A DNA stretch of 64,000 nt, taken from Anastrepha obliqua. Its lineage: Eukaryota; Arthropoda; Insecta; Diptera; Tephritidae. This document shows, piece by piece, positions 18,791 through 61,069 of this stretch (positions within the stretch are counted from its first letter, which is position 1; every line of letters starts with the position of its first letter). A program made the translations under genes and the position numbers. The stretch is taken from the NCBI RefSeq assembly GCF_027943255.1, contig NC_072896.1:45658501-45722500 (forward strand), given 5' to 3'. Under the pieces are notes generated by a model, which was not told the DNA's origin, searched no databases, and saw only the letters and a program-made list of their open reading frames with translations.

Positions 18791-18858
18791 TTGAAGGCCA
18801 AAAGCATTTGTTTTTAAGTTAAAAATGCACAATGTAAGTTATTACGTTAAGATGGTTA

Positions 18859-19754
18859 TAAAGGGTGGTTAAATTCTAAGGGCCGATGTTTAATGTCAAC
18901 CACACCTAAACGTTAGGTTGTTTTCTGCATTTCATTTGATATTTTTCAATTTCAGACTAATTCAATTTGAACCATGAAAAAGTACACAATCGAGCAACGC
19001 GTTAAAGTTATTCAGGCTTATTATGAAAACGGGCGTTCAAATCGAAATGCATATCACGCACTTCGTGATTTCAGTGATGAGGCACATTTTCGCCTCAGTG
19101 GATTCGTCAATAAGCAGAATTGCAGCATTTGGGCGAATGATAATCTAAGAGTTATTGTCGAAAAACCAATGCACCCACAAAGAGTGACTGCGGTTTATGG
19201 GCCGGTGGCATCATTGGGCCGTATTTTTTCTAAAATGAGGCCGGTCAGACAGTTACTGTGAATTGTGTTCGCTATAGTGATATAGTGATAACGAACTTTT
19301 TATGACCCGAATTGGAAGATGTGGATGTGGACGATATGTGGTTTCAATAGGACGGTGCCTCTTGTCACACAGCTAACAAAACAATGGCTCTTTTGCGCGA
19401 AAAATTTGATGGCCGAATAATCTCACGTCGCGGCGATGTCAATTGACCGCCAAGATCATGTGATTTGACACCGTGGAAGTTCTTTCTTTGGGGTTATTTG
19501 AAAGAAACGGTGTACGTCGGTAAGCCAGCAACAATTCAAGAGCTAAAGGATGAGATAATTCGGCACATTAACGGCATAGAACCTCAATTATGCCTCAGAG
19601 TAATCGAAAATTTGGACCATCGGATGGAGGTGTGCCGCCGAGTCATACCATTATTATCTTAATAAAGAGAAATGACAATAGAGAAATGACAATAGTAAAA
19701 AAATTGTATTTGATTTAAAATGAACACCGGCCCTTGAAACTTAACAACCCTGTA
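18859..19754 (+). mobile_element. DD41D mariner with both ends, internally deleted
   Basis: Ends are AAGGGTGGTTAAATTCTAAG and an inverted copy (TTTCAAGGGCCGGTGTT core) with TA at both sides, 896 bp overall. The plus strand begins MKKYTIEQRVKVIQAYYENGRS, then leaps from about residue 30 to FSDEAHFRLSGFVNKQN, removing most of the N-terminal DNA-binding domain. After VTAVYGPVASLGRIF frameshifts follow, but NRTVPLVTQLTK (QQDGASCHTANK in frame) and CRRVIPLLS show the original DD41D protein. Two shorter relatives lie at 20619-21198 and another at 57748-58167. Confidence 0.85.
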
Positions 19755-20618
19755 TATACCATAGATTTTACTATTCATGTGCCTATTCCATTAATTTCGT
19801 TAAACTCAATTAAACAATTACAAAAAAAGCAAAGAACCCATTTCCTATTTCATTTTTATTCCATTGTTAGCTGTTTTATATTTCTTTTATGCACATTCGG
19901 TAAATTTTTTTTTTTTTATATTTTTGGCGCCGCTGTTGCATTCTTTACTGGCCAATTTCGCGTCCTTGAAAATTTTATATTTTAATTTTTAAGAGACACA
20001 GCCAAATGTTATCTGCGCATATTTCAAGTTGTCATTGCACTCGTGCCTGTGAATATCAATAGAAAATAATTCAAGTGAAATGCTTTGCAATCGTGTCAGC
20101 GGCATACAAATTTCTCACCCAAATTATTTAAGTGAAGTATGAAGCAAATAAATACATATGCAAATAAGCTAAAATTGAGAAATGGGCGAATAACTGCGCA
20201 CGTATGTATAAATAAATACATTTGTGCAAAGTAACAACAACTTTTGGAATTGGATAGGAGGCGTATGAACCATTTTTATAAATTGTTTGCCTCAGTTTGC
20301 ATGCACTCAAGCGTGAAGACGAAAAAGTTTGACAGGCATGAATGCATCAAAGAAATGAGGCAATTGTGATATTTTCCCGACAGTCCATTAAGCAGAGTTT
20401 GTTGTTAGCATTGTCGACGGCCAACCAAAGTTGTTGCGCGGGCAACATTCCAATATAAATATAAAATATATAGCATTTCTCCAAGAATCATAGAAGTAAA
20501 ATTGCGTCCACCAGAGAGTGCGTGGCGTCACACTGGAGCATCCTTCCATTTAAAACTTAATTTAGGAGAATTTCTTTAAAAAAAGGCCGAAAAACACTTT
20601 TAGGTACATTGGAGGTTG
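19755..20618. other. No gene recognised
   Basis: AT-rich DNA with a poly-T run at about 19908-19918 and no supported gene. Confidence 0.4.
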
Positions 20619-20795
20619 TAAAGGGTGGTTAAGTTTCAAGGGCCGGTGTTGATTTTGAATAAAATGCAATTTTTTTAGGAAATTATTGCCATTTCTCTTT
20701 AGTATGATAATATTTGTATGGCTGAATTACGCATGAAACAAAATATCGGCCAAATGGCCGCCGCGGCCTCGGCGGCACACCTCCAAAGACCACCA
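20619..20795 (-). mobile_element. DD41D end fragment, first of two tandem left ends
   Basis: Begins TA then AAGGGTGGTTAAGTTTCAAG and continues for about 175 bp with the same sequence as the following copy, ending after the GGCCGCCGCGGCCTCGGCGG tract. The rest of the element is absent. Confidence 0.7.
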
Positions 20796-20815
20796 AATAC
20801 AAATAGTTCCTTATC

Positions 20816-21198
20816 TAAGGGGCGGTTAAGTTTTAAGGGCCGGTGTTGATTTTGAATAAACTATAAGTTTTTCAAAAATTAATGTCATTTCTCTTTATTA
20901 TGATAATAGAGATATAGCTCAATTACGTATAGAATAAAATATTGGCCAAATGGGCGCCGCGGCCTCGGCGGCACACCTCCATCCGATGGTCCAAATTTTC
21001 GATCACGCTGAGGCATAATTGAGGCTCTACGCCGTTAATGTGCCGAATTATCTCATCCCTTAGCTCTTGTATTGTTGCTGGCTTATCGACGTACACCTTT
21101 TTTTTCAAATAACCCCAAAGAAAGAAGTCCAACGGTGTCGTTGACGTTTAGGTGTGGTTCCCATTCAACATCGGCCCTTGAAATTTAACCACCCTTTA
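20816..21198 (-). mobile_element. DD41D short derivative, both ends present
   Basis: A 383-bp unit with TA-flanked ends (GGGCGGTTAAGTTTTAAGGG at left; inverted copy at right). The minus strand retains only the transposase C-terminus: DFFLWGYLKKKVYVDKPATIQELRDEIIRHINGVEPQL and NLDHRMEVCRR. DFFLWG carries the third catalytic Asp. It is a MITE-like internal deletion of the family at 18859-19754. Confidence 0.85.
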
Positions 21199-22070
21199 TA
21201 ACAAGATAAGGCACAAGGTTCAAAAAGATCGTTATGCTTTTTTCAGAATTATCTGTTATTTGTTTGTTTTTTTTTTTACATGAGTTCACCTCTGTGGCTT
21301 TAATTCATTAATTATTCAGTAAATTCAAATGCTTTTAAAATTTATGATAAAGTTTTAAATGTTAAGAAGAGTGGAGAGGAGAAGATCCAATATTCTTGCA
21401 TAGACTCAAAAGTAGCAAAAAATGAGATTTACTCTTTAAAGAATCAAAAGTTTTTCAAAAGCACTGAAATTTTCTCAGGACAAGCTTTAAATGCAAGAGT
21501 GGTTTTTTAGCCTGTTTTTACATTATACAAAAGCTTTTTAACTCACAGTTTGGTAACTTTAAATTAAAAATGAAGCAAAAACCAAACTCAAAAATATTCA
21601 CATTATGGGTATAAAAAAGGACTGAATTTGTTGCGGAAAGCAAAGAGTTGGCAATACTGCATAACTGCACCAGCTGTTTCTTTCAAATTCGCTGAGAACC
21701 GGTTAATGGTCTGATGGTGGCCAGACTTGTGCATCCTATAAATCGCGAAATTTTTTATTCTTATTTTGCATAAATCTGAAAAAATTAGCTGGATTTAGTT
21801 CGCTATTTTCTATTTGATGGCCCCTTTTTTTCACGAAATATGACAGCGGTATCAATAACATCCACATTAGGGCGCATCTTTGATCTCTTGTTTTGTTTTG
21901 GAAGAAGTACGAAATGATAGTATCTCTAGAACCAAATTCACGCCCATTAATGACTTTCTTTGAATTTTCTTTGACTTCTTCTTCTTATGCCGCCTTAAAC
22001 AATAAGTTCAATGTGTTCTAAGCGAAAATTCCGGCAACATTGCCAACATCACTCATATTATCAACTAGCA
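21199..22070. other. No gene recognised
   Basis: AT-rich DNA without a supported gene. Confidence 0.4.
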
Positions 22071-22790: not shown

Positions 22791-23200
22791 CGGGTCCACG
22801 TTTTGGCATATATTTCGAGACCCTAGTCATCAATAGGTATGAAAATTACCCCGTATTAAAGCACTTCCATTTGATACCCATATTGTACATACACAACCAA
22901 AGGTTACCCGGGTCCACGTTTTGACCTACATCTCGAGACCCCAGTCACGGAGCGGCATGAAAAATACTCTGTACTAAAGCATTCACCAACAGCTTCAATT
23001 TGATATCCACATTGTACAAACACATTCTAGGGTCCACGTTTTGGTCTCTATCTCGAGACCCTAGTCACGGAGCAGCATGAAAAATACTCTGGACTAAAGC
23101 ATTCACCAACAGCTTCCATTTGATACCCTTATTGTACATACACATCCGAAGGTTACCCGGGTCCACGTTTTGACCTATATCTCGAGCCCTATTTCCAAAA
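22791..23200 (+). repeat. Tandem array, four units of about 120 bp
   Basis: The motif GGTCCACGTTTTG starts units at about 22791, 22909, 23029 and 23158 (spacings 118, 120, 129). Each unit has TCTCGAGACCC, GTCACGGAGC, GCATGAAAAATACTCT and ATTGTACA in the same order; the last one is incomplete. Confidence 0.85.
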
Positions 23201-25609: not shown

Positions 25610-26350
25610 ATACCAGTCTAACGGTTAGACGCGATAGAAGTGAAACCTTCCGTAAAACAAACTGAGAGAGAATGAGACGAAAGCAGCATTAGACGCGGGA
25701 TAATTATAGGTTCATTATAATATTGCTATAAAGTTCATGTTTTATTTTCTTCATTTTATTATTATTCATCCTCAATGTTTTCAATGTCAACAAATGATAC
25801 GAGTGGCTTATGATAGCTAAAATATGATACAAATGCTTTGGTTTCGATGTTGTCAACATATCTTTGAAATACCGCGTCAATTGTTGTTTTTGATCGTGTT
25901 GTCGATTCAGTGCGATTGTTACACATTTTTAAATTGAATGTTGTATTGAGAAAGTCAATTGAAGGAACCGCTGTGTCCAATGCAAAATTTACGTTAAAAT
26001 CGCCACTTAAAATCATTGGAACTTTATCGTAATATTTTCTAAGTATCCGCGATACTTCTGGTGTATACTTTATTAAATTTTCGTGAATGAATTCCGTGAT
26101 GCTATTTATTGATTTTTTTTCTGTCGATATTCACGACACTTTTCTGCATTATTTTTCGGCATAATTGCGGTAAATATTTAAAAATGAAAATATTTACGAA
26201 TATAAAAATACACACGCGGTTGCTATTATGAGCGTCCCCAGCAAAACCTGCGTGACTGAAACTCTAACACAATTACATTTTTTTGAATGTTACAAACACA
26301 TATGCACGCAGGTTTTGCTGGGGCGTGACCGAAACTCTAACACAATTACA
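25610..26350 (-). mobile_element. Helentron/Helitron-like element, internally deleted
   Basis: On the minus strand an initiator frame MPKNNAEKCREYRQKKN (about 26190-26130) resembles the start of Helitron-like proteins. A +1 shift leads straight into FIHENLIKYTPEVSRILRKYY and then MILSGDFNVNFALDTAVP, IDFLNTTFNLKM, TTIDAVFQRYVD and YFSYHKPLVSFV. SGDFNV and FSYHKP are endonuclease/exonuclease/phosphatase-fold motifs, as in the C-terminal endonuclease of Helentrons. The Rep and helicase domains are missing. A 7-bp-stem hairpin (GTCTAAC/GTTAGAC) lies at 25617-25631 near the 3' end, and a 19-bp palindrome at the 5' end. No full-length relative is in the window. Confidence 0.6.
26236..26323. repeat. 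Perfect 19-bp inverted repeat plus direct repeat
   Basis: CCCCAGCAAAACCTGCGTG at 26236-26254 is repeated in inverse at 26305-26323 with no mismatch. In addition CGTGAC(T/C)GAAACTCTAACAC followed by AATTACA occurs as a direct repeat starting at 26251 and 26324. Confidence 0.9.
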
Positions 26351-26479
26351 CATATGCACTCGTATTTGTTTGAAAATCGACTTTTTTTTTGGTTCTCCGT
26401 CACCTTTGGAAAATGTGTAAACAGTAAGCAAACTTTATTCAAATATTTTTCCTCATTTTTGCATCAGTAAAATTAAACA

Positions 26480-26700
26480 AACGCCGTAGCCGAATGGGTT
26501 GGTGCGTGACTACTATTCAGAATTCACAGAGAGAACGTCAGTTCGAATCTCGGTGAAAACACCAAAATTAAGGAAAACTATTTTTCTAATAGCGCTCACC
26601 CCTCAGCAGGCAATGGCAAAACACCGAGTGTATTTCTGCCATGAAAAAAAGCTCCTCATAAACATATCTTAAAATAAAATAAAATAACTGTATAAAAAAA
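26480..26700 (+). mobile_element. tRNA-derived SINE, 3'-truncated
   Basis: A tRNA-like head holds box A TAGCCGAATGGG (26487-26498), a full match to the TRGCNNARYNGG consensus, and box B around GTTCGAATCT (26541-26550). The body continues with AACACCAAAATTAAGG, AGCAGGCAATGGCAAAACAC, TATTTCTGCCATG and AGCTCCTCATAAAC. The same body is seen at 52340-52480. The tail decays into AAATAAAATAAAAT. Confidence 0.75.
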
Positions 26701-26708
26701 ATGTTTTT

Positions 26709-26773
26709 CTTGTGATTCGAACCAAGGATTTTGGATCGGAAGCTCACATTGCTAGTCGCTCGGCTACCGCGCC
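26709..26773 (-). mobile_element. tRNA-like SINE head, opposite orientation
   Basis: Minus-strand sequence starts GGCGCGGTAGCCGAGCGAC (box A-like, last two bases off consensus) and has GGTTCGAATCAC (box B). The ends do not pair as a tRNA acceptor stem, so a functional tRNA is unlikely. Confidence 0.55.
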
Positions 26774-27274
26774 ATGCTGTCGGCGCTGGCCTAAAAGTTA
26801 TTTAGTTCGTCGCTACGTTTATATCAACATATAATATAACGCTTCGTAGCCAAGAGTGTCGCTTTTTTCGTTTCACTTTTTCTCAAATCACTCCCAACGA
26901 TTCTAAAGAAGTGGTAAAAATGCAACAACTGCTGCTGCAGAAATAAACACTGTTTACGGAGAGGATACCGTGAGTGTAAGGACTGCGTAAAAGTGGTTTT
27001 CAAAATTCCGAAGCAGTAACTGCGACGTGGAGGATGCCCCGCGCGCTGGTCGTCCTGAAGTCTTTAACTCCGACGCCTTGCTTGAACTCGTGGAAGCTGA
27101 GCCAAATTTGACAGTCGATATGATAGCTCAGAGGTTAAATTCATCGCTTGGAACAGTTCACAGGCACCTCGTACAGTTGGGAACGGTTTCAAAGCATGGA
27201 AAATGGGTTCCGCATAGACTTTCCGTCGTCAACCTTCAGCAGGGAGGGAATGTGTGTTCTCAGCTGCTGCAACG

Positions 27275-28677
27275 CACACTGTGACTTTTTATCGTTTTAG
27301 GATGCCAAAATTAAAAAAAAAAAAAAGTTCTGGGAAAATGATTTTCTTTCGGTATGTTGTGTAAAAATGACCAAGTTTTACGACAGTGTACTCAAAATTT
27401 ATCAAAACAATAGTTTTAAGAAAGATAACCGTTTACAAACACAAGCCGGTGTGTCAATTGAATAATTTTTATTTATTATCCGAACATCGCTGTGAAGTTT
27501 GTCAAAAGATATAATACGAATAAGTATCAATTTCATAAAATTGAGTATTTGCTGATTAAATTTCAACATTTTTGTACTTCAGGGCTAAGTAAGAGGATTA
27601 TAAAGTTTTTACTATCGATACAAATCCGCTCAGTAAAATATCACTAAAACAGCCATAGCTTAATGTTATTTTTGATATTTTACTGAGGAAAACTTATATT
27701 GGTCCATCGAGTTCCGTCCATTCTTTAACAGCGAAATGACCTTTAGGATTCTGTGTTTCAGATACTGGAATAAAATTTTGCTACAATTTGCTACCACAGC
27801 TTTAAAAGAAGTTTTCATGGCGATTCCTCGGAAAGAACTTTTTGAAATTTGGCTGACGAGCTCAAAAGAAACGCGTCGAGATGCGGTGTAAGAGAAAATT
27901 TTTGCGGTAATCGGAAGAGACGTGGATACTAAAAAGCTAGAAAAGCGTATAAAAAAACTGTGTTACCAATTTTCTTCAAAGTGGGAGGGGTCTTGCCGAG
28001 TTAAGGCCCGTGTTCTAGCCCGTAATTATAGTTGGTTTTCCAAGAGTGAAGACTTTGGAAAATACCGTCTTGATGTTGGGCCATCAACTTCATCCTCTAT
28101 TAGATCCAATGTAGGTAGACCACATGTGGCGTTTTCCGATTATTCTCTTCCCACAAAGAAAAGAAAAGCAAAGAGTCTTTTAGCAGTATCAAATAGCGAA
28201 CAAGTGTTAATGGCGGTAGAAATGGGACTTAGATCAAACGGTAAGAGAAATTCCGCAATATTATTTAAAGAGCTGTGTTTGTCTTCACCGTCAAGAGGTA
28301 CTGTGTTTATTGGTATTGAAACAATTTGTGATTATCTCCTTCATTGAGCAGTATAATGTAGTATAAAAAGGTACCCAGGGGCTGAATGAAATCTTTTAAA
28401 TATTAGTCATAAGCCTCTAAGCTAAAGTTAAGAAATCTAAGCAATTTGTATTTAAATTGGCACTGGAAAGGAAAATGCTTTTAAAGTAGAAAATATGATT
28501 ATGTGAAATTTTACCTTATATGTGGGCAAAGAGAAAAAGTGGGCGTATCACGCCCATTTTTATTCTCAAATCAGATTTAGGTATTTGCAACCACACTGCA
28601 AAATTTGAAATGAATTGCTCCATTGGTTTGGCTGTTATTAATTTTGGCATCCTAAAAGTGAAAAAAGTCACACTGTG
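27275..28677 (+). mobile_element. Transib-like DNA transposon, 1403 bp, nested in mariner
   Basis: Terminal inverted repeats of about 41 bp (five mismatches) begin CACACTGTGACTTTTT on the left and CACAGTGTGACTTTTTT on the right. The first seven bases of the right end are exactly CACAGTG, the RAG heptamer; the left differs by one base. The same 20 bases, TTTTAGGATGCCAAAATTAA, follow at both ends. A GC-rich 5-bp duplication CAACG flanks it (27270-27274, 28678-28682), and removing the insert plus one copy makes the surrounding mariner frame continuous. Five-base GC-rich duplications and CAC-type ends are Transib hallmarks. Confidence 0.75.
27818..28347 (+). pseudogene. Remnant N-terminal part of the Transib-like transposase
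   Basis: Starting with MAIPRKELFEIWLTSSKETR, a stop at about 27890 precedes a 141-codon open frame: KKLEKRIKKLCYQFSSKWEG, RNYSWFSKSEDFGKY, GRPHVAFSDYSLPTKKRKAK and EQVLMAVEMGLRSNGKRNSA. The basic stretch and the GRPxxxFxDxSxxTKKRK block resemble, from memory, N-terminal regions of Transib transposases; the catalytic DDE core is absent. Position inside the terminal repeats supports a transposon origin. Alternative: an unrelated captured host fragment. Confidence 0.45.
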
Positions 28678-29373
28678 CAACGGCTTGAAAATGAAAGTTT
28701 TTTTTCAACTGTGTCGTTACTGGTGATGAAAAATGGGTTCTTTACAATAATCCTGTTCGTAAACGCCAATGTTTAGATAAATATGAAACACCAGAACCGG
28801 CCCCTAGAGATGGCCTTCATCCCAAGAAGATTCTCCTGTCTATTTGGTGGGATATGGCCGGTATTGTTTATTATGAACTTCTGGAACCAAACCAGACGAT
28901 AACTTCTGATTATTATGCCCATCAGCTTTCAAACCTGAATGAGGCAATTAACAAAAATCGACCGTCTTTAGTGAATAGACGCAAAGTTTTCTTTCACCAC
29001 GACAACACAAGACCTCATACCGCAAGGCAAACATTAGGCAAGGTGAGCGAGCTCAGATGGGAGCTAATGCCGCATCGACCATACTCTCCGGATATTGCAC
29101 TTTGTGATTACCACCTTTCCGTGGACTTCAATCCCATATGAGTAACAAGAACAACTCCTCAAAAGAAGCTATAAAAAGGGATATCGAAGCGTATTTGGGC
29201 TCCAAGGACAAACAATTTTTTGAGCGGGGAATTAAAAATTTGCCTAAGCGTTGGGAAGACTTTGTAAATAATGAGGGAAAATATATTATTGACTAATAAA
29301 TACTTTAAACATCTTTTTTATTAATTTTAAAACCACCTTTAAAAAACGCGCGAACTTATGAACTGACCTGATA

Positions 29374-32480: not shown

Positions 32481-32508
32481 GAAATTATCTACTAGATTAT
32501 AATACATT

Positions 32509-33050
32509 CCAGTAAAAGTGCTATAACTCGCTTGGCTTTGCTCTGATTGACTTGAAATTTGGACACGTAAAAGCTTCAGCTTTTTCAAATATGCAAAAAT
32601 CATGAAAATCGGTTGTCAAATAACAAAACTGTCAAATATCTTTGGAAGAATTGCTGTAACTCCCTCAATTTTGTTCTGATTGGCCTGAAACTTTGACATT
32701 TTCCCTTCCAGTAAAAGTGCTATGATGCTATGCTTTGCTCTGATTGGCTTGAAAATTCAACACGTAATTGTAGAAGCTTCGGAGGCAGAATTGCTGTAAC
32801 TCCCTCAATTTTGCTCTGATTGGCCTGCATTTTTGACATTTTCCCTTCCAGTAAAAGTGCTATAACTCGCTCAGATTTGCTCTGATTGGCTTGGAAATTC
32901 GACACTTAATTGCAGAAGCTCCAGCTTTCCCAAATATTCAAAAATTATGAAAATCGGCTGTCAAATAACAAAATTGTCAAATCTCCTCGGAAGAATTGTT
33001 GTAACTCCCTTAATTTTGCTCTGATTGGCCTGAAACTTTAACGTATTATT
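32509..33050 (+). repeat. Minisatellite with 140- and 200-bp units
   Basis: CCAGTAAAAGTGCTAT starts units at 32509, 32708 and 32848. Inside them TTGCTCTGATTGGC(C/T)TG occurs about six times, together with AACTCCCTCAATTTTG and GAAAATCGG(T/C)TGTCAAAT. The middle unit lacks about 60 bp. No open frame is credible across it. Confidence 0.8.
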
Positions 33051-33059
33051 ATATTTATA

Positions 33060-33975
33060 ATAAAAAAATTCATTACAACAATATTTCTCGTTGGCATCAT
33101 TTTAAGTTCTCAAGTTCTTAAAAAAACTCACATATATCTGTTGGTTCGGTGTATCAGCACCAGATTATGGTTTATACGATGGCCAAATATCTGACAGAGT
33201 TGTGTTTTCACCAACCTGGGTCTGAAGACTGGACACTGAGTTTCTTTCGAAACGATATAACAAATGTAAATACATAAAAAAACTTTGCTAACAACCGGTT
33301 TGTTTTCAACGTCACCACAAAACGAATTAAAGTATGATTGCAAAGCAGCTTTCGCAATTGAAGCAGACTTGACACACTCATATGCCAACTACAGCTTTCT
33401 CCATCTCGGAAGTGTCATTGAAGTGTGGTGGAAGAGTATTTTTGCCAGCATGCAAATTGTCACAAATTTCTGGCGAATATGCATAATTTGGCAGATATTT
33501 AGACAACTCTTTTTATAGAAAGCAAAATATTAAAAGCACAAGCACTGACACTCCAAAATAAACTCAAATATAAGTATAGCTTCATATGTACGAGTATGTA
33601 TGCAGGTGTGCGTTAACGCTGAATGAGCATCGTTTCGAAGGCATCATCATTATACGAGTTGAGTATCTTTAAGAGCAAAACTGAAAAGCAGCGCCGCTAA
33701 AGTGAGCGGTCACGCGTGTTTTCGGCTTTTCCATATGCCCGGTTAGGTATGCAAACATACGTCAGTGTGTGCTCATATGTAAAGTGACCCAGCAGGAAAA
33801 CTCCGTACTAGTAAAAATAGTTTCTGGAATAATTCAACATCGTTGTAAAAAACTGCAAAACGGTCGTATTGTGGTTAAATAAATTACAGATTCTTCATTT
33901 TTCTCACAATTTATGAGTATTGCTTACACAGTTTCCCCTAAAGTTGGCCTAAAAATAAAAAATAATGCGCTCTAA
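33060..33975. other. No gene recognised
   Basis: AT-rich DNA with short open frames that match nothing I know. No supported gene. Confidence 0.4.
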
Positions 33976-46769: not shown

Positions 46770-47630
46770 GATGCTTTCCATTTCAATTCAACCGGGCTAT
46801 TCGGGTCATGTTCTTCGATTTCGATGTAACTCAAATAGGTTGCTCTCTGGTCAAAATAATGAGACACGTATTTTTTTGTTCGCCCGAAAAAAATTTTTTT
46901 CAAGAGTTATCGGCAATTTTGTTTTTCGGCTCAAACTCGATTTTTTTTAATTATATAAGAAAAAAATTTTTTTAAATGCCCATAACTTAGTCAAAAATGA
47001 ACCGATTTTAATAATTCTGGGTTCAAAATGATCGTAATTACTTACACAAGCGACTTCATGTAGAAACAATTGCAAAAAAGTAGTTGAAAAGTTTTTATTT
47101 AGAAAAAAAGAAAAAAAATTGAAATTTTTTCGAAATTCAATATTTCCAAAAGTGTATTTTTTTTTTTTTATAACTTTTTCCAAATCAAAAGGACATCTCA
47201 AACTTTAATAGAGCTGAATGCCTAGTAGCTAAAATGAGTTGTTTTTGAGTAATGAATTTTTGAGTAAAAAACCTGTCTCGCACTTTTTGTTTTTTGCAAA
47301 ATAAAAAATTTTCAACTACCTTTTTGCAACTGTTTCTACATGAAATCGCTTGTGTAAGTAATGACGATCATTTTGAATCCAAAATTATTAAAATCGGTTC
47401 ATTTTTGAGTAAGTTATGAGCATTTAAAAAAAATGTTTCTTATATTATTAAAAAAAAAATCGAGTTTGAGCCGAACAACAAAATTGCCGATAACTCTTGA
47501 AAAAATTTTTTTTCGGGCGAACAAAAAAATACGTGTCTCATTATTTTGACCAGAGAGCAACATATTGCAGTTACATCGAAATCGAAGAACATGACCCGAA
47601 TAGCCCGGTTGAATTGAAATGGAAAGCATC
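46770..47630. repeat. Fold-back: about 330-bp inverted arms, 200-bp spacer
   Basis: The left arm (46770-47102) and right arm (47303-47630) are near-identical inverted copies, starting with GATGCTTTCCATTTCAATTC and containing GGGTCATGTTCTTCGATTTC, CAAGAGTTATCGGCAATTTT and CATGTAGAAACA. A peptide frame (FGRTKKYVSHYFDQRATY) therefore appears on both strands. The spacer is A/T homopolymer-rich. TTCT occurs just outside both arms, a possible target duplication. Confidence 0.9.
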
Positions 47631-56208: not shown

Positions 56209-57747
56209 ATAAGCGAAAAATTAGGTACTGTATCTTGTAAGTATGGTTGAAAAAAAAACTTAAAATTATTTACTGTTTTTTAAAGTTCCTAAATCCTCTA
56301 ACTTTTTATGTTAAAAAAAATCCATAAATGTATGATATCTGTCTTATTATGCATATAAGTCTCTAATTTGGAATATGGCGCCATATCATATTTTGCTTAG
56401 TTACTACAAAAAATTTGGCCGTCACTTTGAAGTTTGATTTCATAAAATTAAAATCTTATTTCGAAGATACTCAAAATAATTAAGTTACCCTACTGGGAAA
56501 TGTAAAAACGGAAATTCCGGGCTTTGACTAAAAAAAAAATTAAGCACCGAAATTAAAAAAAAAAGATTAAAAAAAATGTTTAATCGAACTAAAAACAAAA
56601 ACATTTTTCAAAAATACCAATTTTTTTTTAAATATCCCTAACACTCAGTACTTCGTAAGGTAATTACACCTGAGATCAATTGAGCTCCTCCTGAGTCTGT
56701 GATGTGTGTCTCTGATGTTTTCTTACAATTTGCGGTTTTATTGAAGCTTTTTCTTTACTGAAATATACTCGGAAGTTTACCATCACCTGTACCAGAGAGT
56801 GTGCCGGCGGCGTTATTATTTTAAGAAAAGGCAGGCAAGCGAATGAAAAATTCTCTCAAAGATAGCAAACAAAAACAAAATTATAAAAAATGATTAAATA
56901 AGACTAGTTCTGTTGGAGTCATCCCAAATAAAAATCAGTTAAAAGAAACTGAAATGAATGCTTTAACAAATTCGATGGGGTTACTCATCTTTCACCACTC
57001 AGTGTAAAATTAATAAATATTTCGTTATCATTTTTAATTAACAGACAATTCAACTGTTTTGTGTTGTTAATTTCTTAATATGTTTGGGGTATTTATATTC
57101 ACATCTTTGGAGAAGGAAATATTTATAAGATTTTACATACACACATAAATAAATTTGTATTGAATAGCAGAATGTTATTAATCCCAGCTTTCGGCTGCAT
57201 TGCATCAGCGATTGTGTTACTGGCGTCTGTACGTGGCTTTACCAAAATGTGTCAGTCAATGATAACGCAATATTTTGGAGAAATATAGGGAATCCCGATA
57301 ATAACGCACAATCTTGTTATTATTCTTACCATTGCATTCTGGTTATAATTTGTACTTGTTTACACAAATATGAAGAGTTGAGTCAAGAAGCCTCATTTGA
57401 GTAGATATCTGACTTTTTGGGTTAGCACTGGCTAAATATTCATTAGTCTCCTCCTCTTTGGTACTTTTTCCTGAAATTCCGGTCATGCTGATTGGTGTAA
57501 GACACTTAGAAAATGTGTTGCTTTTAAACGAAGTGAAGTGAATGAAGAACCAAAGTTTTTTTTTTTGATGCTCAATAACTAGGACTTGCAATTTATCAAA
57601 GAGTTATGCGTATTTGAATATTTTTTTTTTAATATTTATTCATAAAGTGCGGTATTTGAAGACAACTTGAGGGCAAAAAAACTAGCTTTTATTATGAACA
57701 AGATTTTATGAAAATTCACGAATTTTTTACACAACATGAACTTATTA
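56209..57747. other. No gene recognised
   Basis: AT-rich DNA with A-rich runs at about 56520-56640. No supported gene. Confidence 0.4.
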
Positions 57748-58167
57748 TGAAGGGTGGTTCAGTTTCAAGGGCCGGTGTTGATTTTGAATAAAATACAATT
57801 TTTTTAGGAAATAATTGTCATTTCTCTTTATTATGATAATATTGGTTTGGCTCAATTACATGAAACAAAATATCGGCCTCGCTGGCACACCTCCATCCGA
57901 TGATCCAAATTTTCGATAATGCTGAGGCATAATTGAGGACCTATGCCGTTAATGTGCGGAATTGTCTCATCCCTTAGCTCTTCAATTATTGCTGGCTTAT
58001 CGACGTACACCTTTTCTTTCAAATAACCCCAAAGAAAAAAGTTCAACAGTGTCAAATCACATGATCTTAACGGCCAATTGACATCGCCGCGACGTGAGAT
58101 TATTCGGCCATCAAATTTTTCACATTCTCACATTCAACATCGGCCCTTGAAATTGAACCACCCTTTA
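57748..58167 (-). mobile_element. DD41D short derivative
   Basis: Ends AAGGGTGGTTCAGTTTCAAG and its inverted copy at 58137-58167. Only the transposase C-terminus is left: NFFLWGYLKEKVYVDKPAII (third Asp changed to Asn), GIGPQLCLSIIENLDHRMEV. Same family as 20816-21198. Confidence 0.85.
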
Positions 58168-58809
58168 TATCTATAAAATCATTCAAAAACATTTTCATTT
58201 TCTCTTCGATAAGGATACGCAAACGATTGTGTGCCCGAATAAATGCTTTTTATTCATTTGGACCATAATAGTATTGATTGTAGTCTTCAGAGCAGAAATG
58301 GTGTTATGAGGATGCTTATTGGTTTCATGCTCAACTACGCCCTATAAGTAGTAATCCAGACGATTAAGGTCTGGGGAGTTAAGCGGCCATAAATAAGTTA
58401 AGTATTATGTGGTCATGGAAATTTTCAGTTATCCAATCCTGTGTCACCATCGCTTTGAGAGAAGGAGCAGAGACATACTGAAAGATTTATCAATCCAGGG
58501 TTTCACTAATGTCTCTAGAACCTCGACAAATGCAGCAGAATTTACTCGAAATTCTTCAAGCACGACATGATCATTGTTACTCACAACATCTAAAACCATA
58601 ACAGTAGCTGAAAACTTCATTTGTATGCTAACAGGAACCTTTGTAGGATTTGTCATTCTAGTCATTCCTGCGGCTAGTCTTTTGGTCTCGGTAAATATTT
58701 TTTCATCAGACATAACATAACATCTCAGACGCTTAAGGTGTTTAATTTTGTTTAGAAGGCATTTCGATCGGATAACTCGTTGCCCTCGTATTCGCCCCGA
58801 TATATGACA

Positions 58810-60434: not shown

Positions 60435-61069
60435 ACAGCCTGAAGCGTCTGAGATGTTATGTTATGTCTGATAAAAAAAATGTTTACCAAAGCCAAAAGA
60501 TCAGCCGCACAAACGACCAGAATGGCAGATGACTATGTTTTTGCATATAACGTAGAATTTACTGCGGAGATCTTCATGGACAACTCGACAGATAAGCGGC
60601 TCAGACACCTTAAGCTCTCTCGCAAGGACTCTCATTGATTTTGAAGGGTCCTTGTCTATGATCGCTTGCACTTTTGTTGAACAAATTTTTCAGATCGCAC
60701 AGTATCGAAATGTGCCTCGTGTGTTTTGCACTTTGCAAAAGATTTGGCATCACCGCTTGAGTCTTCCAATTCACGACGAACCTTATGAACGCTTCTAAAT
60801 CAGTGTGATGTGCATTTGAAACGATGATAACTGCAGGTCTCTTTATATCTTGAGTTAAGTTGTGATTCTCCATGTCTTATCTGAAAAAGAATAAAAAGGA
60901 AAAAATGGTTACAGGAAGTTATAGCCACATATTTGCATGCCCTCAACTATTGTATGCACCCTGTATATATTAATCGCCTTCTATATTGGTTGTTCCTATA
61001 TACAAGTACTTCACACAATCCTGGATTGATTTTTTGTTTCTTTAAGATTTAGCAATAAATTGCTTCAGT

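What the first reader, a model, noticed from the sequence alone, without database searches (positions are those of the whole stretch)
27270..28682. Transib-like element with a RAG-type heptamer nested in a mariner
The insert has ~41-bp inverted ends starting CACACTG and CACAGTG; the second equals the RAG recombination-signal heptamer. A 5-bp GC-rich duplication CAACG flanks it, and removal of the insert plus one copy rejoins the mariner frame as LLQRLENE. Those three traits together (CAC ends, 5-bp GC-rich duplication, clean excision model) fit the Transib superfamily, the relatives of RAG1. The internal frame is an N-terminal-like relic.
Basis: partly seen in the sequence, partly recalled or inferred. 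Interest (0 to 1): 0.8.

Follow-up and report, generated by a model that had tools for sequence, protein, structure and literature searches.

The report
Dead Transib transposon inside a mariner

Summary
The observation and the interpretation both hold. The insert is 27275-28677 (1403 bp), with inverted ends matching at 35 of the first 41 positions, flanked by CAACG. It is an internally deleted, non-autonomous copy of a Transib family with many copies in the host genome. Near-full-length siblings (about 2.95 kb) carry a broken transposase gene; two pieces match the solved HzTransib structure (E=1.5e-38, 2.2e-20). Of 29 complete copies read, 25 have a perfect 5-bp duplication (consensus CRNYG) and none a longer one. 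All 40 scored mariner paralogs (of 842 candidates) match across the insertion point. The internal frame is residues 1-164 of the transposase, upstream of the catalytic core. It includes the GRP region equivalent to the RAG1 nonamer-binding domain, an equivalence already in print. Five of six short copies share one deletion junction at different sites, so the deleted form itself moved, presumably in trans. The right end equals the RSS heptamer CACAGTG and the left is CACACTG; both are family-wide. A nonamer is not supported above chance. No copy read has an unbroken transposase, and the retained frame looks nearly neutral. An ordinary member of a known superfamily; whether the family already has a name could not be checked.

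The parts
27270..27274 (.). left copy of 5-bp target site duplication CAACG
   Evidence: empty site with one copy in mariner paralogs
28678..28682 (.). right copy of 5-bp target site duplication CAACG
27275..28677 (+). non-autonomous Transib element, 1403 bp
27275..27315 (+). left terminal inverted repeat; first 7 bp CACACTG
   Evidence: heptamer in 27 of 29 copies
28637..28677 (-). right terminal inverted repeat; on the - strand it begins CACAGTG, the RSS heptamer
   Evidence: heptamer in 25 of 29 copies
27817..28347 (+). remnant transposase frame; 27817-28308 corresponds to residues 1-164 of the sibling transposase; in-frame stop at 27889-27891; the tail after the junction is read-through of another part of the element
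   Evidence: (tblastn 92.7%)
28114..28302 (+). part of the remnant equivalent to the RAG1 nonamer-binding domain (GRP at 28114-28122)
   Evidence: each weak alone; published equivalence PMC9435367 (passages)
28308..28314 (+). internal deletion junction (about 7 bp of filler); about 1.55 kb of the full element is missing here
26913..29296 (+). host mariner relic, broken by the insert and by its own frameshifts and stops (boundaries approximate)
   Evidence: Pfam Transposase_1 E=5.2e-27 in the piece 28713-29138; paralogs; left limit inferred

Best explanation
The insert is a non-autonomous Transib transposon. A full-length element of about 2.95 kb lost about 1.55 kb from its middle, including all of the catalytic region. 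The shortened element kept both ends and was copied to several sites, presumably by transposase made by longer siblings. One copy was inserted into an old mariner by cut-and-paste transposition, with a 5-bp staggered cut at CAACG. Shown: element, ends, duplication, empty site, family, shared deletion junction, Transib transposase in siblings. Inferred: mobilisation in trans, and the RAG-like hairpin mechanism, which is taken from published work on HzTransib. The copy encodes no working enzyme.
For: Sibling piece L046:1048-2373 (442 aa) matches HzTransib 6pqn at E=1.5e-38, and the C-terminal piece L046:2473-2988, with the SEEAQESRNKD motif, at E=2.2e-20. The window's remnant is 92.7% identical to residues 1-164 of the L046 protein. 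25 of 29 complete copies have a perfect 5-bp duplication, none longer; C at position 1 in 24 of 25, G at position 5 in 21 of 25. Five of the six 1.34-1.40-kb copies have the same junction at different sites. 40 of 40 scored mariner matches, of 842 candidates, run across the joined flanks; 12 of 12 that were aligned show one copy of the target, 11 of them CAACG and one TAACG. A distant Transib in the same genome (L064, 688-aa open frame, 6pqn E=1.2e-113, RAG1L E=4.7e-9) is also flanked by CAACG, and the remnant matches its N-terminus (28% over 114 aa, E=3e-13 for that single comparison).
Against: The window copy has no catalytic part, so its class rests on siblings about 96-97% identical to it in DNA. 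Direct searches with the remnant alone found nothing significant in the large protein set, Pfam, NCBIfam or PDB. Movement in trans was not observed. No own-family copy with an unbroken transposase was seen among those read. Four of 29 copies (L003, L034, L036, L042) lack a perfect 5-bp duplication.
Confidence: 0.97

Rival explanations
1. A hAT element with an 8-bp duplication whose copies have drifted. The flanks share 7 bp (TGCAACG) directly and 8 bp with one mismatch.
For: CTGCAACG and GTGCAACG differ at one base if the right end of the insert is moved inward (sequence).
Against: In 29 copies no duplication exceeds 5 bp. The two ends line up base for base only if the duplication is 5 bp. The siblings' transposase matches HzTransib.
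Confidence: 0.01
2. A RAG-like (RAGL) transposon with RAG1L and RAG2L, not a Transib.
For: CAC ends and 5-bp duplications are shared with RAGL elements; the relative L064 hits RAG1L weakly.
Against: For L064 the best match by far is HzTransib (E=1.2e-113 against 4.7e-9 for RAG1L), and for L046 HzTransib is the only match. In seven copies of about 2.95 kb the frames of 120 aa or more are transposase pieces or antisense frames overlapping them, 244 aa at most; the two longest antisense frames hit no RAG2 family in Pfam. The ends do not fit the printed protostome RAGL consensus CACTWMCAAACKTYKBB.
Confidence: 0.01
3. The remnant was kept because a truncated, DNA-binding N-terminal protein represses transposition.
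For: The retained part includes the nonamer-binding-like domain; it is free of stops in three of the six short copies (L003, L005, L006).
Against: Changes against the family consensus are 41 non-synonymous to 16 synonymous in the six short copies and 134 to 53 in the other 23, against 3.3 to 1 expected for random change: close to neutral. The window copy and L004 have stops, and the usual start context was not found in L002.
Confidence: 0.03

Closest known systems
HzTransib (Helicoverpa zea Transib; PDB 6pqn and five more entries)
   Same: Sibling transposase aligns with two parts of the HzTransib chain, residues 8-253 and 345-480; TIRs and a 5-bp GC-rich duplication (GCTCG for HzTransib, PMC1852546, passages).
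   Different: The 497-residue chain aligns only from about residue 176 of the sibling protein, so the window's remnant (1-164) has no counterpart in it. The window copy lacks all that the chain covers.
L064, a distant Transib in the same genome
   Same: 688-aa open frame, N-terminal GRP region, CAC ends, duplication CAACG.
   Different: 34% identical to L046 in protein; ends CACATAC/CACATAG.
RAG1 nonamer-binding domain and RSS
   Same: One end is exactly CACAGTG. The predicted N-terminal piece of L064 aligns with RAG1 391-460 in the GRP register.
Non-autonomous Transib elements (Transib N1-N3 of Anopheles gambiae, named in a figure legend of PMC8355894, passages)
   Same: Transib family members of the same genus of element; that the N names mark copies without transposase is my recall of the naming custom.
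   Different: Sequences were not at hand for comparison.

Membership tests
Transib superfamily | 5-bp target site duplication | tested here: met
   25 of 29 complete copies perfect, none longer
Transib superfamily | terminal inverted repeats that begin CAC and resemble the RSS heptamer | tested here: met
   CACACTG 27 of 29 left ends, CACAGTG 25 of 29 right ends
Transib superfamily | GC-biased target | tested here: met
   consensus CRNYG over 25 duplications; GC bias of Transib targets stated in PMC8289069 (passages)
Transib superfamily | transposase homologous to Transib/RAG1 | tested here: met
   met by siblings; the window copy itself keeps only an N-terminal piece that matches L064
Transib superfamily | DDE catalytic residues | tested here: inconclusive
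   motifs WGCDG, MID and SEEAQESRNKD of L046 align with HzTransib; they are deleted from the window copy; no activity test
RAGL transposon | RAG2-like gene | tested here: not met
   seven copies of about 2.95 kb show no further frame of 120 aa or more except antisense ones overlapping the transposase; the two longest of these hit no RAG2 family. A search of the genome with the RAG2 family did not complete
RAGL transposon | protostome RAGL end consensus CACTWMCAAACKTYKBB | tested here: not met
   consensus ends CACACTGTGACTTTTTA and CACAGTGTGACTTTTTT against the consensus quoted
V(D)J-type RSS | heptamer CACAGTG | tested here: met
   right end only
V(D)J-type RSS | nonamer ACAAAAACC at 12 or 23 bp | tested here: not met
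   5 of 9 at spacers 22 and 23 on both ends, but 6612 of 20,000 shuffles of the left end do as well
hAT | 8-bp duplication | tested here: not met
   0 of 29 copies

The most novel reading that the evidence does not exclude
The two ends of this family differ in a fixed way at heptamer position 5 (CACACTG left, CACAGTG right) and at positions 17-20, while the other 35 of 40 consensus positions agree. If the transposase reads this difference, the family would show end discrimination carried by the heptamer and not by a 12/23 spacer. The first nine bases of the two ends are reverse complements of each other.
Probability: 0.07. Interest if true: 0.4.

Novelty: new member of a known kind. Interest (0 to 1): 0.2.

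Why it matters
It adds a multi-copy Transib family, its deletion derivative, and empty sites that prove the insertion. It also shows a natural Transib end identical to the vertebrate RSS heptamer, without a nonamer above chance. This fits the printed view that Transib ends share the heptamer and mostly not the nonamer. It is a clean textbook case and not a surprise.

Tried and rejected
Searches with the remnant alone (Pfam, NCBIfam, PDB, two large protein searches) gave nothing significant; the remnant covers only the N-terminal part of the protein. The whole insert had no match among phages. The nonamer was tested and dropped. An 8-bp hAT reading was dropped. A mariner-in-Transib nesting in L030 was considered: the 1116-bp insertion there matches window 25611-26912, which is not the mariner, so it was dropped. 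A repressor role for the remnant was dropped. I found no paper in the held library on this family; searches: 'Transib' with 'Tephritidae' (1 paper, listing only, on hAT elements) and with 'Anastrepha' (1 paper, passages; a different element). Repbase and Dfam could not be searched. Kapitonov and Jurka 2005 is not held; what I say of it comes from papers that cite it. The Pfam label PF26100 is attached by the database to many of the 120 listed relatives, but my own scan of L064 found no family; not explained. A genome search for RAG2 (PF03089) did not complete.

In the 29-copy count the rows left out were: loci that showed only one end or a broken alignment, loci that repeat a copy already fetched, and L018, whose flanks equal those of L017/L038 although it lies elsewhere (a duplicated locus). 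L031 and L036 share flanks too and were both kept, so there are at most 28 independent sites. The copies came from one search that scored 40 of 131 candidates.

Full report
What is there. The window region 27270-28682 holds a 1403-bp insert (27275-28677) between two copies of CAACG. The first 41 bases of its two ends match at 35 positions. The left end begins CACACTG; the right end, read on the minus strand, begins CACAGTG. The insert splits a mariner: the part to the right matches Pfam Transposase_1 at E=5.2e-27, and joining the flanks with one CAACG restores the local reading LLQRLENES. The mariner is broken elsewhere as well, by a frame change a few codons after the joint.

The insertion is proved by empty sites. 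A 233-base query made of the joined flanks was sought in the window's own genome (836 Mb, 204 contigs, unnamed). All 40 matches that were scored, out of 842 candidates of the first look, run across the joint, at 91-96% identity. In the 12 that were fetched and aligned the joint is intact, with one CAACG in 11 and TAACG in one.

The family. The insert has relatives throughout the genome (102 matching pieces, 40 of 131 candidates scored). The left 16-mer occurs exactly 74 times, against 5 for the reversed control. I read 29 distinct complete copies, 1341 to 4073 bp long. Twenty-five have a perfect 5-bp duplication and none a longer one. The duplications follow CRNYG: C first in 24 of 25, A or G second in 24, C or T fourth in 22, G last in 21. 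The four exceptions are L003, L034, L036 and L042; L036 shares its flanks with L031 except for one base of the duplication. The left heptamer is CACACTG in 27 of 29 copies and the right heptamer CACAGTG in 25 of 29.

The transposase. Copies of about 2.95 kb carry a long, broken gene. The longest open piece seen in them gives a 443-aa protein from its ATG (L046:1045-2373). Searched from the second codon (442 aa), it matches the solved HzTransib transposase at E=1.5e-38 over query residues 176-425. The C-terminal piece L046:2473-2988 matches it at E=2.2e-20. The remnant frame in the window, 27817-28308, is 92.7% identical to residues 1-164 of the same protein. So the insert keeps only the part upstream of what the HzTransib chain covers, and it has one in-frame stop at 27889-27891. 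Against L046 it lacks about 1.55 kb, the junction lying between 28307 and 28315.

A deleted form that moved. Six copies (L001-L006, 1341-1403 bp) lack the same middle part. Five of them, the window's included, have the same junction and filler, L004 with one base changed; L005 has a wider deletion that removes it. They sit at different sites with different flanks and differ from one another by 1.6-3.2%. The simplest reading is that the deletion arose once and the short form was then copied, with enzyme made elsewhere. This step is inferred. No own-family copy that I read has an unbroken transposase gene; L063 has a 586-residue open frame but matches L046 only from base 833 on, and its second acidic motif reads MIGGKVC. 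The genome also holds more distant Transibs, 35-40% identical in protein, with open frames of up to 688 residues (95 of 1187 candidates scored). One, L064, was read: CAC ends, duplication CAACG, HzTransib E=1.2e-113, RAG1L E=4.7e-9. Whether its enzyme can act on the ends of the window's family is not known.

RSS likeness. The heptamer is real and family-wide at the right end. The nonamer is not supported: both ends have CCAAAATTA after 23 bp, 5 of 9 matches, but a third of shuffled sequences (6612 of 20,000, left end) do as well at one of the allowed spacers. PMC8289069 (passages) says of most Transibs with symmetric ends: clear likeness to the heptamer, little or none to the nonamer. PMC8355894 (passages) stresses that a few Transibs do have 12/23 spacing; this family is not shown to be one of them. 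The ends are also near-palindromic over nine bases, which makes CACACTG and CACAGTG mirror forms of one motif.

How it works. By the mechanism reported for HzTransib (as cited in PMC6941560, passages), the transposase cuts blunt at the element ends and leaves hairpins on the flanks; insertion makes a 5-bp duplication. For the window copy this is inferred from its ends, its duplication and its relatives. The copy can supply ends only. Its frame shows little sign of selection: 41 non-synonymous to 16 synonymous changes in the six short copies and 134 to 53 in the other 23, where 3.3 to 1 is expected without selection. The counts include shared changes more than once.

Verdict. The insert is an ordinary non-autonomous Transib. 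The family may be unnamed, but Repbase and Dfam could not be searched.

Noticed in passing
L064 (G000 C6:67127600-67130900): A distant Transib with a 688-aa open frame, CAC ends and the same duplication CAACG; similar open frames are listed, so such elements may still be active.
   Followed up: partly
window 25611-26912; L030: Sequence that abuts the host mariner's left part matches, at 93-99%, a 1116-bp insertion inside another Transib copy (between its bases 45 and 46), so a further mobile element seems to lie next to the mariner. Not classified.
   Followed up: partly
46770-47115 and 47284-47630: Large inverted repeat pair, 87-92% complementary (I2 and I4), around a short centre: fold-back structure.
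   Followed up: no
18855-18913 and 21144-21202, with related arms near 19399-19642, 20615-20926 and 57743-58174: Inverted repeats (GTTATAAAGGGTGGTTAA...) and several related arms in the window: perhaps another DNA transposon family, perhaps nested.
   Followed up: no
58698-58738 and 60439-60479: 41-nt inverted repeats, 95% complementary, 1.7 kb apart: candidate DNA transposon.
   Followed up: no
22792-23149 and 32507-33068: Arrays of direct repeats: three copies of 120 nt, and several interleaved copies of 75-132 nt.
   Followed up: no
L017/L018 and L031/L036: Pairs of Transib copies with the same flanks at different places, so the host DNA around them was probably duplicated.
   Followed up: no
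PF26100 is attached to many Transib relatives in the protein database, but a fresh Pfam scan of L064 gives no family.
   Followed up: no
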